DNA of 64,000 nt from Psychrobacter alimentarius (GTDB taxonomy: Bacteria > Pseudomonadota > Gammaproteobacteria > Pseudomonadales > Moraxellaceae): the NCBI RefSeq assembly GCF_001606025.1, contig NZ_CP014945.1, positions 434,001 through 498,000 on the forward strand. The letters run 5' to 3'. Numbering within the stretch: the first letter of the stretch is position 1; every line of letters begins with the position of its first letter. Made by a program: the position numbers and the translations under genes. Of this stretch, positions 18,341 to 63,316 are shown in pieces. The notes below the pieces were generated by a model. That model was given only the letters and a program-made list of their open reading frames with translations, searched no databases and was not told where the DNA came from.

Positions 18341-18478
18341 TATAGTCAGTTCGACATACAATCGATACGTTGAGGTTACGTGCGACTGGTATGAATTTTT
18401 CGTAGCCTCTGTGTTAGCACCAAGCAAGGAAAATTTATACCAGTTGCACTGTTTCGATTTTAAAGTCAATCGACTATA
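18341..18478 (-). repeat. Dispersed palindromic element, copy 1 (long form, reverse)
   Basis: Ends are TATAGTC (18341) and GACTATA (18478). The inner arms ACTGGTATGAATTTTTC and GGAAAATTTATACCAGT flank the asymmetric core, which here reads CGTAGCCTCTG...CCAAGCAAGG (reverse orientation). The right half, read in reverse, is near-identical to the left half of the copy at 63193. It lies after the FAH-family gene and before the phoX-like gene. Confidence 0.8.
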
Positions 18479-18571
18479 TAAAAGTCCCAAGTGATTACTT
18501 GAGGATTTTTTTATGTCAAAATTTTAGCCATCTAGCATATTTCGATAGAATCATCATAAAATTTCAACGTA

Positions 18572-18589
18572 CTGTCACAAACCAGCAGT
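18572..18589 (+). promoter_or_regulatory. Possible Pho box upstream of the PhoX-like gene
   Basis: CTGTCACAAACCAGCAGT has a perfect first half-site (CTGTCA) and a weak second half against the PhoB consensus (about 12 of 18 positions). Phosphate control would suit the downstream phosphatase, but the match is partial. Confidence 0.3.
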
Positions 18590-18680
18590 AAACTTGGACG
18601 TAATTCGTACTTTAGCGGTCAAAAATTTTAGCCGCATTTATCTTTTTACGCCAATCCAGCCAACTGCAAGGTGACTGATA

Positions 18681-20903
18681 ATGACATTGTTAAATAAAGA
18701 GCTAGAACTCGCGCACGAAATCGTTGAAGATTCAAATCCTACCAATAACACTGATTTTCAGACCATTATCAATCGTCGTCTGAATCGCCGTAGTATTTTA
18801 AAAGGCGGTACAGGATTGACTGCAGCCGCATTTTTTGGGGCGCTACCTTTGGTGGGTTGTAGCGATGATGACGATAACAGCCGTCCTATTGTAGAAAATG
18901 GCAATGATGCAGCCATTCCTGCTCAAGGTGACTTAAAACGCCCTGAAACGTTAAAGTTCAAAGCAGTAGCTCACTCAACTGCCGAGACAATGACGGTAGC
19001 AGACGGTTATAAAGCAGAAATCATATTGCCACTTGGCACACCACTGATGCCTGGGATTGAGGATTGGAAAGACAATCGTGAGCAATCAGCTGAGTCCTTT
19101 GAATGGCGCATGGGCGACAATCATGATGGTATGTGGTTTTTTGGCAAAAAAGGCAACGCATATGATGCCAAGGCCGCAGAAAGTGGTCTGCTGGTAATGA
19201 ATCATGAATATGTGAACAGTGAAGAGTTGAGCCCATTTGGTTATTACGTCACTCAAGATAAAGATGCCGCGCCTTTATTTCAAAGCCGTCGTCTTGCCAG
19301 TGATATCCGCCGAGAGGTCAACTGTCACGGAGTAGCAGTGGTTGAGATGATTCGCCGTGCAGACGGCAAAGGCTATGAGATGGTACCAACGTCAAAATAC
19401 AATCGCCGTATTACCAGCAGTACGACTTCGCAGTTGGCTGGCCCCGTGGCTGGATCTGATTTGGTAAAGACCAAGTTCGATCCAACAGGGTATCAAACTC
19501 GCGGTATCAACAATAATTGCGGCGCAGGGTTGTCACCTTGGGGCACATACCTCACCACAGAAGAAAACTTCTTAGGTGTGTTCGCACGTGGGCAAGATGC
19601 CAGTCAATTAAGCGCTGGACACAACTATGGTCGTGAGCGTTATGGGGCATCAGAAAACTCTCCAGGCTCTAGATATTTATGGCATACCCCTGACGCAAAA
19701 GACGCCATCATACCAGATGAGTTTTCACGCTGGGATATGACGGCAGTTGGTACAAATGCCACTGAAGATCACCGTAATGGCTTTAATACTTTTGGCTATA
19801 TCACAGAGATTGATCCTTTTGACCCAAAATCTATGCCACAAAAGCGCACAGCGATGGGACGTTTTGCTCATGAAAACTGTGCCTATGCGCCCGTGGAACA
19901 AGGCAAGCCCGTCGTTTTTTATATGGGTGATGATGCCCGAGGCGAATATATCTATAAGTTTGTCTCAAAAGCTGTGTGGTCGAACAATGACATTGGTGGC
20001 GGCTTAAAAGCAGGCGATAAATATCTGAATGACGGCACACTATATGTGGCTATTTTCAATGAAGATGGTAGTGGTGAATGGAAAGCCTTGATTCATGGTC
20101 AAAATGGCTTAGATACGTCTAATAGTGAGCTGCCTTTTAGTGGACAAGATGAGGTATTGATTTTTGCCCGCGCAGCAGCTGATGTGGTTGGTGCCACTAA
20201 GATGGATCGACCTGAATGGGTGTCAGTCAGTCCGATGACAGGCGAGGTATATGTGACCTTGACCAATAACACCAATCGCGGCGTCAAAGATGACCAACCA
20301 CTTTCTGCTTCTAATCCACGCAGCTATAACGTTGATGGTAAACTCAGGGGTAATGAAAATGGTCACATCATTCGCTGGGCAGAAGCAGGCGGCGATCATA
20401 CAGCGATGAGTTTTGAGTGGGATATTTATCTGTTTGCCACACCTTATGATCTGGCTGCAGAAAATTTGTCACAGTTAAATGATAGCAATGATTTGTCATC
20501 TCCCGATGGTTTGTACTTCGATCCACGCGGTGTGTTGTGGATTCAGACAGATGATGGCGCTTACACCGATACCACCAGCTGTATGTTGCTGGCAGCGTTG
20601 CCTGGTAAAGTCAGTGATGGAACCGCCATAACGACGTCGGCAGGACAACAAACACGAGTTGGAATGCCTGCTAGTAATGATAATATCAAACGTTTCTTTG
20701 TCGGTCCCGAAGGCTGCGAAGTGACAGGTATTACCATGACGCCAGACTTCAAAACCCTCTTTATCAATATCCAGCATCCAGGTAATAGTTGGGGAGCCAT
20801 CACAGGTGGTACGATTCCGCGCTCAGCCACGGTAATGATTACTCGTGATGATGGAGATGTTATCTTGGCAGAGTCCTTTGATACAGCAGAAAATGTGGCT
20901 TAA
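18681..20903 (+). CDS. PhoX-family (DUF839) phosphatase, Tat-exported
   Basis: The 740-residue protein resembles PhoX-type alkaline phosphatases, calcium/iron enzymes that release phosphate from organic esters outside the cytoplasm. The N-terminus has a twin-arginine signal, NRRSILKGG (residues 35-43), followed by a hydrophobic stretch ending in LPLVGC, so Cys60 forms a lipobox and the protein may be a Tat-exported lipoprotein. Family blocks include LVMNHEYVN (about 172-180), NCGAGLSPWGTYLTTEEN (about 279-296), RFAHENCAYAP and SPDGLYFDPRGVLWIQTDDG. Length fits the larger members. It is a single-gene unit with a terminator at 20981. Confidence 0.85.
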   Translation: MTLLNKELELAHEIVEDSNPTNNTDFQTIINRRLNRRSILKGGTGLTAAAFFGALPLVGCSDDDDNSRPIVENGNDAAIPAQGDLKRPETLKFKAVAHSTAETMTVADGYKAEIILPLGTPLMPGIEDWKDNREQSAESFEWRMGDNHDGMWFFGKKGNAYDAKAAESGLLVMNHEYVNSEELSPFGYYVTQDKDAAPLFQSRRLASDIRREVNCHGVAVVEMIRRADGKGYEMVPTSKYNRRITSSTTSQLAGPVAGSDLVKTKFDPTGYQTRGINNNCGAGLSPWGTYLTTEENFLGVFARGQDASQLSAGHNYGRERYGASENSPGSRYLWHTPDAKDAIIPDEFSRWDMTAVGTNATEDHRNGFNTFGYITEIDPFDPKSMPQKRTAMGRFAHENCAYAPVEQGKPVVFYMGDDARGEYIYKFVSKAVWSNNDIGGGLKAGDKYLNDGTLYVAIFNEDGSGEWKALIHGQNGLDTSNSELPFSGQDEVLIFARAAADVVGATKMDRPEWVSVSPMTGEVYVTLTNNTNRGVKDDQPLSASNPRSYNVDGKLRGNENGHIIRWAEAGGDHTAMSFEWDIYLFATPYDLAAENLSQLNDSNDLSSPDGLYFDPRGVLWIQTDDGAYTDTTSCMLLAALPGKVSDGTAITTSAGQQTRVGMPASNDNIKRFFVGPEGCEVTGITMTPDFKTLFINIQHPGNSWGAITGGTIPRSATVMITRDDGDVILAESFDTAENVA

Positions 20904-20980
20904 ATATCTAAGCGATTAAAAATCTAAGCGCTTATAAATAAGTGGCGAACGAAAAGAGTAGTCTTTGCTCAAACCACCAA

Positions 20981-21009
20981 AAATCCCAAGTTAAGGCCTG
21001 GGATTTTTT
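20981..21009 (+). terminator. Intrinsic terminator after the PhoX-like gene
   Basis: AAATCCCA pairs with TGGGATTT and is followed by a T-run. Confidence 0.8.
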
Positions 21010-61845: not shown

Positions 61846-61911
61846 CGTATCGCTTTTGAGATATGTTGATTATAGCGGGGTTTAATTTTTTGAACTGTAA
61901 TCAATAACCTT

Positions 61912-62388
61912 TTACCCTAGATGCTGCTTAAAGCCGCGCTGCTTATCACGTTCCCAATCACGGTCTTTAAGAGTTTTGCGTTTGTCGTGCTGTTTTTTAC
62001 CCAATGCTAAGCCAATTTGGCATTTCACCAGTGAGTTTTTCCAGTAGCAAGACAAGGGTACGCAGGCATAGCCTTTTTGATTGACCGCACCAAATAACTT
62101 TTCAATTTCACGGCGATTGAGCAGCAGTTTACGGGTACGCATACTGTCAGGGCTGACGTGCGTTGAGCTGGATAACAACGGCTGAATATGCGCACCAAAT
62201 AAGAAAGCTTCGTTGTTGCGAAAGATCACATAAGCTTCCGTGATGGTCATTTTCCCCGCGCGAATCGCTTTTACTTCCCAGCCTTGTAGCGCCAGACCAG
62301 CTTCAAAGGCCTCTTCAATAAAGTACTCATGACGCGCCTTTTTATTGGCACAAATCTGATTGTCCGGTTTTTTTGATTTTTTTGACAT
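61912..62388 (-). CDS. smpB: SsrA-binding protein
   Basis: The 158-residue protein binds tmRNA and brings it to stalled ribosomes in trans-translation. [32 protein letters not shown] (about 13-44) is the tmRNA-binding core, GAHIQPL and [11 protein letters not shown] follow, and the basic C-terminal tail [17 protein letters not shown] is intact. Length is normal. ssrA was not found in the window. Confidence 0.96.
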
Positions 62389-62639
62389 AATTTCTCCATA
62401 AGAGCAGGTAAAAATACAGCGCTCTTATATAACTAATCCTACTAATTCCTCATGCTAATCCTATCATCAAGCTTGTCTTTTGTTTGATAGATAAGACAGA
62501 TGAGTCGAACCAAGTATTGTAGCAAAGCCGCTGATGAAAAGGTAAGTCAGCTGTTAGGACAAATGTAGCAGATAAGTATTAAGTTTGAGCAAAATTTGCT
62601 AGCATATGCCCTAATATTACCGAACTTATTAGTCACGCT

Positions 62640-63161
62640 ATGAGCATTCCTACGTCTTCTGCCAATTCATCAAAGCTACACACCAAAATCTTGTATCCGG
62701 GTACTTTTGACCCCATTACCAACGGTCATGTGGACTTGGTCACGCGCGCCACCAAACTGTTCGATGAGGTGGTGATTGCTGTCGCCTCAGGTCATCATAA
62801 AAAACCGCTGTTTAATTTTGAGGAGCGGGTATCTTTGGTCAAAACCGTATTTACGGACTTGCCGCAGGTGTCGGTGATTGGCTTTGAAGGACTGCTTGTC
62901 GATTTCATGCGCGAAAAAAACGCCACCGCCGTCTTACGGGGTTTGCGTGCCATGTCAGATTTTGAGTATGAGTTTCAGCTGGCCAATATGAACCGCGAGC
63001 TTGATGAAAACTTTGAAGCCGTTTTTTTGACGCCCTCTCAAAATTACTCCTTTATCTCATCGACCATGATTCGTGAAATTGCCAAGCTTGGCGGTGATGT
63101 GAATAAATTTGTCCCACCCTGTGTCTCGCAAGCCTTTATTGAAAAATTGAATCTTAGATAG
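62640..63161 (+). CDS. coaD: Phosphopantetheine adenylyltransferase
   Basis: The 173-residue enzyme adenylates 4'-phosphopantetheine in CoA synthesis. [15 protein letters not shown] (about 19-33) with the nucleotide-binding T/H motif, [17 protein letters not shown] loop (here [13 protein letters not shown]), [21 protein letters not shown] and [19 protein letters not shown] are all present. The N-terminus has about 12 extra residues before the usual start. It is transcribed divergently from smpB. Confidence 0.96.
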
Positions 63162-63192
63162 ATTGGATTACTAAATTGGATTACTAAGTAGG

Positions 63193-63316
63193 TATAGTCG
63201 ATTTACTTTAAAATCGAGACAGTGCGACTGGTATACATTTTCCTCGCGTGCTGCTAAGACAGAGGTGACGAAAAATTCATACCAGTCACGCGTTATCCTC
63301 TCTTGTACCGACTGTA
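63193..63316 (+). repeat. Dispersed palindromic element, copy 8 (long form, forward)
   Basis: It starts TATAGTCGATTTACTTTAAA and ends near CGACTGTA. Arms GACTGGTATACATTTTCC and GAAAAATTCATACCAGTC flank the core CTCGCGTGCTGCTAAGACAGAGGTGAC. It lies between coaD and the ferredoxin gene. Its 5' end is almost the reverse complement of the 3' end of copy 1. Confidence 0.85.

What the first reader, a model, noticed from the sequence alone, without database searches (positions are those of the whole stretch)
18341..63316. Dispersed family of palindromic elements whose arms vary between copies but stay self-complementary
At least eight intergenic copies are present: 18341-18478, 28231-28307, 37742-37852, 46840-46955, 59535-59667, 60495-60558, 61772-61845 and 63193-63316, in both orientations. 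All share an asymmetric core (forward: CTTGCTTGCTG, a short variable loop, then CAGACAGAGGCTGC). The flanking arms differ from copy to copy (ACTGGTATGAATT, GCTGGGATGAATT, TACTGCTAATATC and others), yet each left arm matches its own right arm. Such covariation suggests selection on structure, or spread of whole hairpins, rather than simple decay. No transposase gene is present in the window.
Basis: partly seen in the sequence, partly recalled or inferred. Interest (0 to 1): 0.8.

Follow-up and report, generated by a model that had tools for sequence, protein, structure and literature searches.

The report
Jumping DNA hairpin with flipping loop
A short, gene-less jumping DNA element is scattered through the genomes of Psychrobacter bacteria; it carries a hairpin whose two arms change together and whose loop can flip over, which makes it a natural test case for how DNA palindromes keep their two halves matched.

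Summary
The eight copies are real. They belong to a mobile family with 92 places in this genome (E<=1; 89 at E<=0.001), found in 95 of 105 genomes of the genus (Psychrobacter by contig match) and 1 of 243 from other genera of the family. The whole element is about 113-150 bp, TATAGTC...GACTATA. Seven of ten aligned filled/empty site pairs clearly show insertion into TA with TA duplicated, and the ends resemble those of 0.9-kb IS630-family insertion sequences of the genus. It is a TA-specific MITE, probably moved by IS630-type transposases; this genome shows one truncated IS630 copy.

Arm covariation is real: 250 doubly changed cells against 90.5 shuffled and 62-80 slid. New here: three pairs of copies share ends and arms but have the loop inverted, a known signature of template switching between inverted-repeat arms. 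Mispairs are lopsided: the strand opposite CTTGCTTGCTG has about twice as many G·U as A·C, and this follows the loop in flipped copies. I infer that template switching homogenises the arms, perhaps with selection for a hairpin on one strand. Neither was tested at the bench.

The parts
18341..18478 (-). complete element, TATAGTC...GACTATA, 138 bp; hairpin arms 18380-18399 / 18430-18449
   Evidence: R1 match 18382-18447
28182..28325 (-). element with worn right end; hairpin arms 28232-28253 / 28284-28305; extent from the gap against L374
37742..37852 (+). hairpin copy without recognisable TATAGTC ends; arms 37767-37783 / 37816-37832 plus outer arms 37743-37753 / 37840-37850
46840..46955 (+). element with shortened left end (TATAGTT at 46840) and right end CACTATA to 46955
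59535..59667 (+). element with worn left end, right end GATTGTA to 59662; arms 59566-59583 / 59614-59631
60460..60605 (-). element whose hairpin is 60495-60558; ends TATGGTT (60460) and GACTATA (60605)
61739..61874 (+). element of the CTGCTAATATC-arm subfamily; hairpin 61772-61845, right end GATTATA to 61874, left end worn (start approximate)
63193..63316 (+). element TATAGTC...GACTGTA, 124 bp; hairpin arms 63226-63241 / 63272-63287

Best explanation
[quoted passage not shown] An IS630-family (Tc1/mariner-like) transposase acting in trans recognises the TATAGTC...TAAAA ends and inserts the element at TA, duplicating TA. Inside lies a long hairpin with a conserved loop. During DNA synthesis the nascent strand switches template between the two arms; this copies one arm onto the other, so that arms differ between lineages but stay complementary within a copy, and sometimes inverts the loop. 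Weaker selection for pairing of one strand (the one opposite CTTGCTTGCTG, as RNA or single-stranded DNA) tolerates G·U and purges A·C. SHOWN: insertion with TA duplication, ends shared with IS630 elements, covariation, loop inversion, a mispair asymmetry. INFERRED: that an IS630 transposase moves it, that template switching is the cause, and that selection causes the asymmetry. My odds: MITE with an IS630-type partner 0.93; template switching contributes 0.7; one-strand selection contributes 0.5.
For: Empty sites: of 12 G300 elements whose joined flanks were searched in G299, 10 were aligned and 7 cleanly show TA when empty and TA on both sides when filled. Near-identical copies at different sites. 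IS630-family ISs of about 890 and 911-921 bp with like ends; transposase NF033545, 134.1 bits over a cutoff of 100, HTH_Tnp_IS630 + DDE_3. 58 IS ends match MITE ends at a mean 13.5 of 17 positions beyond TATAGTC; 2000 control sites 9.0. Covariation; nearest-neighbour pairs show 43 both-sided changes against 20 and 23 for partners slid +1/-1 and 16.2 expected. Loop inversion: L057/L056, L182/L194, L092/L196, outside identity 0.89/0.92/0.84 crosswise against 0.66/0.76/0.71 parallel. Mispair asymmetry; in flipped copies 3 against 17.
Against: No transposition assay. The genome shows one truncated IS630 match, so copies here may be immobile. MITE end pairs do not point to one IS: shuffling right ends among copies hardly lowers the score (28.37 to 28.19 of 44). 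Of the 43 both-sided changes only 27 keep Watson-Crick pairing on both sides; of 37 copy pairs with one change in each arm at partner positions only 10 do. Single-sided changes outnumber both-sided ones, 289 to 43. Compensated changes are rarely adjacent (3 of 33), which template switching does not specially predict. 'Pairs with a change on both sides' is only 17 against 14.3 shuffled, reached by 18 of 500 shuffles. Two other pairs show TATA, not TA, in the empty site. The asymmetry nearly vanishes among 41 cluster seeds (55 to 63), is absent among rare variants (16 GT-making to 11 AC-making) and has sign-test p=0.015 by position in the thinned set; whole hairpins fold better on the favoured strand in only 153 copies against 113.
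Confidence: 0.75

Rival explanations
1. Same MITE, but arm complementarity is kept purely by selection on a transcribed RNA hairpin with a conserved internal loop (for example an RNase III or mRNA-stability element); loop inversions are rare side events.
For: R-strand G.U over A.C; arms with a neutral loop fold better as R-strand RNA in 222 copies against 48; asymmetry follows the loop in flipped copies; conserved loop bases between variable helices.
Against: No orientation bias to genes: 59 with, 67 against, 58 convergent, 31 divergent of 215. Compensated double changes are not transition-enriched as G.U intermediates would predict: 14 transitions to 19 transversions, single changes 180 to 129. 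Three loop inversions show arm-to-arm exchange. No Rfam family. Asymmetry weak or absent in some counts (cluster seeds).
Confidence: 0.3
2. Same MITE, arms matched only because subfamilies with different ready-made hairpins spread (founder effect), with no ongoing coupling.
For: Subfamilies with different arms and near-identical recent copies; many single-sided changes among neighbours (289).
Against: Covariation persists among close neighbours: 43 both-sided changes against 16.2 expected and 20/23 slid, and among 41 cluster seeds, 8.73 against 6.93, sd 0.31, largest of 5000 shuffles 8.07.
Confidence: 0.1
3. REP-like elements moved by a Y1 transposase (TnpA-REP) that recognises the hairpin, the ends being incidental.
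For: Palindromic, mostly intergenic, high copy number.
Against: TA duplication and inverted ends shared with a DDE IS; that Y1 transposases make no duplications is recalled. No search for TnpA-REP was made.
Confidence: 0.03
4. Unrelated rho-independent terminators with chance similarity.
For: Hairpins between genes; 58 of 215 between convergent genes.
Against: Shared core and ends, about 90 copies, insertion with target duplication.
Confidence: 0.01

Closest known systems
RUP of Streptococcus pneumoniae (with IS630-Spn1)
   Same: About 107 bp, 108-110 copies, TA target, ends like those of a resident IS630 (passages and section 5 of PMC3049150, passages of PMC2229807).
   Different: Other host phylum; TIR size 9 bp in the table of PMC2229807. 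Variable arms around a conserved loop or loop inversion did not appear in the passages I saw; the rest of those papers was not read.
Correia elements / NEMIS / CREE of Neisseria
   Same: Short MITE, TA at the termini, TIR 24 bp, stem-loop RNA cut by RNase III (passages of PMC2229807 and PMC10969869).
   Different: Sequence relation not tested. A passage of PMC10969869 says RNase III cuts at the terminal repeats; here a second, inner palindrome varies between copies. The same paper reports inversion of the Correia element; here the loop alone inverts.
MITEAba12 of Acinetobacter / Moraxellaceae (PMC6382973)
   Same: MITE in the same bacterial family (search listing only).
   Different: Paper not opened and no sequence compared; the listing counts no occurrence of Psychrobacter.
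BOX elements of S. pneumoniae
   Same: MITE-like, stable predicted RNA fold (PMC3049150 section 5).
   Different: Modular boxA-boxB-boxC; resembles another IS (ISSpn2, passage).
REP / BIME elements
   Same: Intergenic palindromes.
   Different: 20-40 bp by the listing of PMC3733652; lack of TA duplication is recalled.
Template-switch (quasipalindrome) mutation of short inverted repeats
   Same: Arm homogenisation and spacer inversion, as in yeast (abstract and passages of PMC8604942).
   Different: The yeast spacer inversions made 2-5 bp substitutions; here a 36-nt loop inverts in a mobile element.

Membership tests
MITE (non-autonomous DNA transposon) | Short, no coding capacity, many copies at unrelated sites | tested here: met
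   about 113-150 bp; 92 places, hand-collapsed from 120 rows, in this genome. Coding capacity was not searched apart from the length
MITE (non-autonomous DNA transposon) | Terminal inverted repeats and target-site duplication shown by empty sites | tested here: met
   12 G300 elements queried; 10 aligned: 7 clean, 1 near (L397), 1 filled in both (L401), 1 unclear (L399); 2 not aligned because their flanks matched apart (L389, L407)
MITE (non-autonomous DNA transposon) | Moved in trans by a transposase | not testable with these tools
   needs a transposition assay
IS630-dependent MITE | Ends shared with IS630-family ISs | tested here: met
   mean best match 13.5 of 17 (58 IS ends) against 9.0 (2000 control sites); 28.4 against 18.6 of 44 for letter-shuffled ends (229 copies, 25 ISs)
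IS630-dependent MITE | TA target duplicated | tested here: met
   two further pairs show TATA
IS630-dependent MITE | Specific partner IS identified by both ends | tested here: inconclusive
   pairing of ends adds nothing, 28.37 against 28.19
Correia/NEMIS | Sequence homology to Neisseria Correia elements | not tested
   no Neisseria copy was fetched
Known Rfam RNA family | Score above a family's gathering threshold | tested here: not met
   0 matches in the window; in 10 loci 9 matches at E<=1, best E 0.029, none at its gathering score
Template-switch arm homogenisation | Spacer inversion between otherwise same arms and ends | tested here: met
   three pairs claimed; flanks outside the element do not align, so not at one site
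Selected RNA hairpin | Covariation beyond shuffles and slid partners | tested here: met
   template switching predicts it too
Selected RNA hairpin | Transcription of the structured strand | not testable with these tools
   no RNA data

The most novel reading that the evidence does not exclude
A mobile element whose cargo is a strand-specific structured RNA (or single-stranded DNA) module: a conserved internal loop between freely rewritten helices. Template switching keeps rewriting the arms and flipping the loop, and selection on the loop-defined strand keeps it foldable whichever way it points, so the element would be a selfish structured RNA carried by an IS630-type transposase.
Probability: 0.3. 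Interest if true: 0.75.

Novelty: new variant of a known kind. Interest (0 to 1): 0.55.

Why it matters
Covarying arms are usually read as proof of selected RNA structure. Here a family found in 95 of 105 genomes of one genus, with 43 or more model rows in 12 of 25 genomes counted, shows covariation together with loop inversions, the mark of a mutational cause, and a strand asymmetry that points back to selection. It could measure how much 'covariation' template switching alone produces in bacteria. It also looks like a large, apparently undescribed source of insertions, strain markers and intergenic hairpins in Psychrobacter.

Tried and rejected
Terminator and REP readings: disfavoured by TA duplication and shared ends. 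IHF role: IHF consensus in 27 of 273 copies against 8 of 273 shuffled, too few to be general. Gene-orientation bias as a sign of an mRNA function: none seen. A mutation-spectrum control for the asymmetry was swamped by subfamily structure; its rare arm variants were 16 GT-making to 11 AC-making, so it does not show the asymmetry and does not settle a strand-specific mutation bias. Partner IS by both ends: not supported. Phages: no match with one copy as query. Group counters printed double-counted literal GT and AC; corrected by arithmetic, CTTGC-strand G·T/A·C are 23/63 (own), 30/85 (named), 12/40 (other). Copy sets: a first detection (734 hits) was too loose and was replaced (295); 22 without TIR-like ends were dropped to leave 273; event counts used in-register copies only (196 distinct arm pairs); the 90-copy alignment was thinned from 210 copies with a 30-nt core, at least 4 arm differences apart. 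R1 was run on 77 of the 120 named loci. Cluster and minority-orientation classes hold some misregistered copies; of 365 copy pairs passing the inversion filter, not independent, seven were printed and three are claimed. My first reading of which orthologous gaps hold a copy was wrong for two sites and was recounted.
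Full report
WHAT IS THERE. The eight copies exist, in both orientations, and share the stated core. A covariance model from the eight (R1, 21 pairs) finds them and no others in the window. In the whole 3.35-Mb genome it gives 120 rows at E<=1, which I collapsed by hand (28 are the opposite strand of the same place) to 92 places, 89 at E<=0.001; 150 of 619 first-look candidates were scored.

DISTRIBUTION. Of 348 genomes of the family, 96 match at E<=0.001: 95 of 105 in the window's genus and 1 of 243 in other genera (232 non-matching genomes are not listed there and are taken from the list order to be other genera). 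Among 38 genomes (own plus relatives) 24 match, all in the genus, with 1 to 129 rows each, opposite-strand rows included. With one copy as query, four plasmid records match, three Psychrobacter and one Acinetobacter variabilis, and no phage.

ANATOMY. Printed in one orientation, copies run TATAGTC + about 15 nt ending in TAAAA, a short or long spacer, the left arm (17-19 nt), the loop, the right arm, a spacer, and the second end ...GACTATA. Arms come in unlike versions, for example CTACTGGTATAAATTTT, CTGCTAATATCAATTTT, CTGCCAACGTCATATTTT and CGATTAAACGCTATTTTT, each with its own complement, around the same core.

MOBILITY. Three window sites were compared with 29 orthologous loci each, recounted by looking for any copy in the gap. 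Site 28231: 1 of 29 has a copy (L383), 26 none, 2 without a flank pair. Site 61772: 4 of 29 have one (L326, L346, L352 and a 34-nt match in L353), 25 none. Site 63193: 1 of 29 (L334), 28 none. G300 and G299 are a near pair (90-92% around one site). The joined flanks of 12 G300 elements were searched in G299. Ten were aligned: seven show TA when empty against TA-element-TA when filled (L386, L387, L393, L403, L406, L408, L410), one is close (L397), one is filled in both (L401), one unclear (L399); the flanks of L389 and L407 matched apart and were not aligned. Two other pairs show TATA in the empty site (L102/L103, L109/L085), either microsatellite slippage or an excision footprint.

PARTNER. 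IS630-type DDE_3 domains occur in 72 of 100 genomes of the genus at E<=1e-8. Of 31 loci examined, 29 gave a best pair of ends, a few of them doubtful; 25 chosen by hand fall at 911-921 and 889-890 bp. IS ends match MITE ends at a mean 13.5 of 17 positions beyond TATAGTC; 2000 control TATAGTC-like sites give 9.0. A 280-aa transposase of one such element (L319) is IS630 by NCBIfam and carries HTH_Tnp_IS630 + DDE_3. The window's genome has one DDE_3 match, a 190-aa ORF with the 3' end but no 5' end found. The two ends of a MITE do not jointly single out one IS.

COVARIATION. Over 273 copies with TIR-like ends (of 295; chosen without looking at arms) own arms pair at 13.34 of 17 positions, swapped arms at 10.58, sd 0.09; for 41 cluster seeds 8.73 against 6.93, sd 0.31. 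On a MAFFT alignment of 90 thinned copies, 16 of 18 arm pairs have changes on both sides; 250 doubly changed cells against 90.5 (sd 10.0) shuffled and 62-80 slid; 87.5% of cells paired against 76.7%. The count of pairs with any both-sided change is weaker, 17 against 14.3, reached by 18 of 500 shuffles. On the eight window copies alone RNAalifold's covariation term is unfavourable, +0.66; on the 90 it is -1.2. Among 153 nearest-neighbour pairs there are 43 both-sided changes, 27 of them Watson-Crick in both copies, against 16.2 expected; slid partners give 20, 23, 13, 9; single-sided changes are 289.

LOOP INVERSION. Three pairs of copies have the same outer ends and like arms but the loop reversed: L057/L056 (18-bp arms identical, 36-nt loop an exact reverse complement), L182/L194 and L092/L196; outside identity 0.89/0.92/0.84 crosswise against 0.66/0.76/0.71 parallel. 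Only the elements align, not their flanks, so these are different sites, in different species by record title or contig length, and the flip cannot be dated to one site. By my classifier 27 of 189 classifiable copies have the rarer loop orientation, some by misregistration. Template switching between inverted-repeat arms gives arm homogenisation and spacer inversion (abstract and passages of PMC8604942).

STRAND ASYMMETRY. With CTTGCTTGCTG read as forward, A·C mispairs outnumber G·T: 280 to 122 over 273 copies and 66 to 26 among copies differing at one arm base. Read on the opposite strand the thinned set has 117 G·U to 61 A·C, at 14 of 18 positions, sign test p=0.015. Arms with a neutral loop fold better there in 222 copies against 48; whole hairpins in only 153 against 113. 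In flipped copies the bias follows the loop, 3 to 17 over 16 arm pairs. Against it: cluster seeds give 55 to 63 and rare variants 16 to 11 the other way. A strand-specific mutation bias tied to the loop is not excluded.

GENE CONTEXT. 7 of 226 copies lie inside a long ORF; of 215 placed, 59 and 67 are co-directional in the two senses, 58 convergent, 31 divergent; gaps of at least 100 nt in the same loci divide 191 and 147 co-directional, 111 convergent, 134 divergent. Avoidance of promoters is likely; a gene-oriented function is not indicated.

KNOWN OR NEW. Closest in working are RUP/IS630-Spn1 and Correia elements (passages and one section). I found no description of this family in the listings of searches of open-licence PMC papers with Psychrobacter, Moraxella or Moraxellaceae and repeat or MITE terms, nor in the passages opened; subscription papers are not covered. 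No Rfam family fits. Class: new variant of a known kind.

Noticed in passing
L324 986-1563 (G000:C1 about 2432285-2432862): The one IS630 DDE_3 match of this genome is a 190-aa ORF with the 3' end TATAGTCAGTTCAAAATAAAA but no 5' end found: probably a dead partner beside some 90 MITEs.
   Followed up: partly
L102/L103 and L109/L085: Two filled/empty pairs show TATA rather than TA in the empty site, possibly an excision footprint.
   Followed up: no
G000:C1 2485197-2485391 (L238): Two elements abut and share one TATAGTC end, as if one inserted at the TA end of the other.
   Followed up: no
window 60524: The longest-ORF start of the gene 60524-61648 lies inside the hairpin of the 60460-60605 element; the true start is probably downstream.
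   Followed up: no
window 37743-37753 / 37840-37850: The copy at 37742 has an extra outer inverted repeat (GCAAACGCTAT/ATAACGTTTGC) instead of TATAGTC ends.
   Followed up: no
window 4582-4614 and 5461-5493: Two identical 33-bp terminator-like hairpins either side of the ORF 4637-5380.
   Followed up: no
window 12601-15474: Three neighbouring ORFs that look paralogous (295-nt stretch 63-71% alike).
   Followed up: no
NZ_CP078030.1 16155-16220 (L428) and genome G229: Copies outside the genus: an Acinetobacter variabilis plasmid copy with both ends recognisable, upstream of a cation diffusion facilitator gene, and 2 matches in one genome of another genus.
   Followed up: partly
G300 loci L406, L407, L408, L410 and G299 locus L400: Near-identical copies of a CGATTAAACGCTA-arm subfamily at different sites: a recent burst.
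   Followed up: partly
G000:C1 40330-40413 and 2191651-2191732: Copies with lengthened loops that contain extra sequence.
   Followed up: no
same-genus genomes: Row counts per genome look two-peaked: 12 of 25 have 43 or more, the other 13 have 0 to 14.
   Followed up: no
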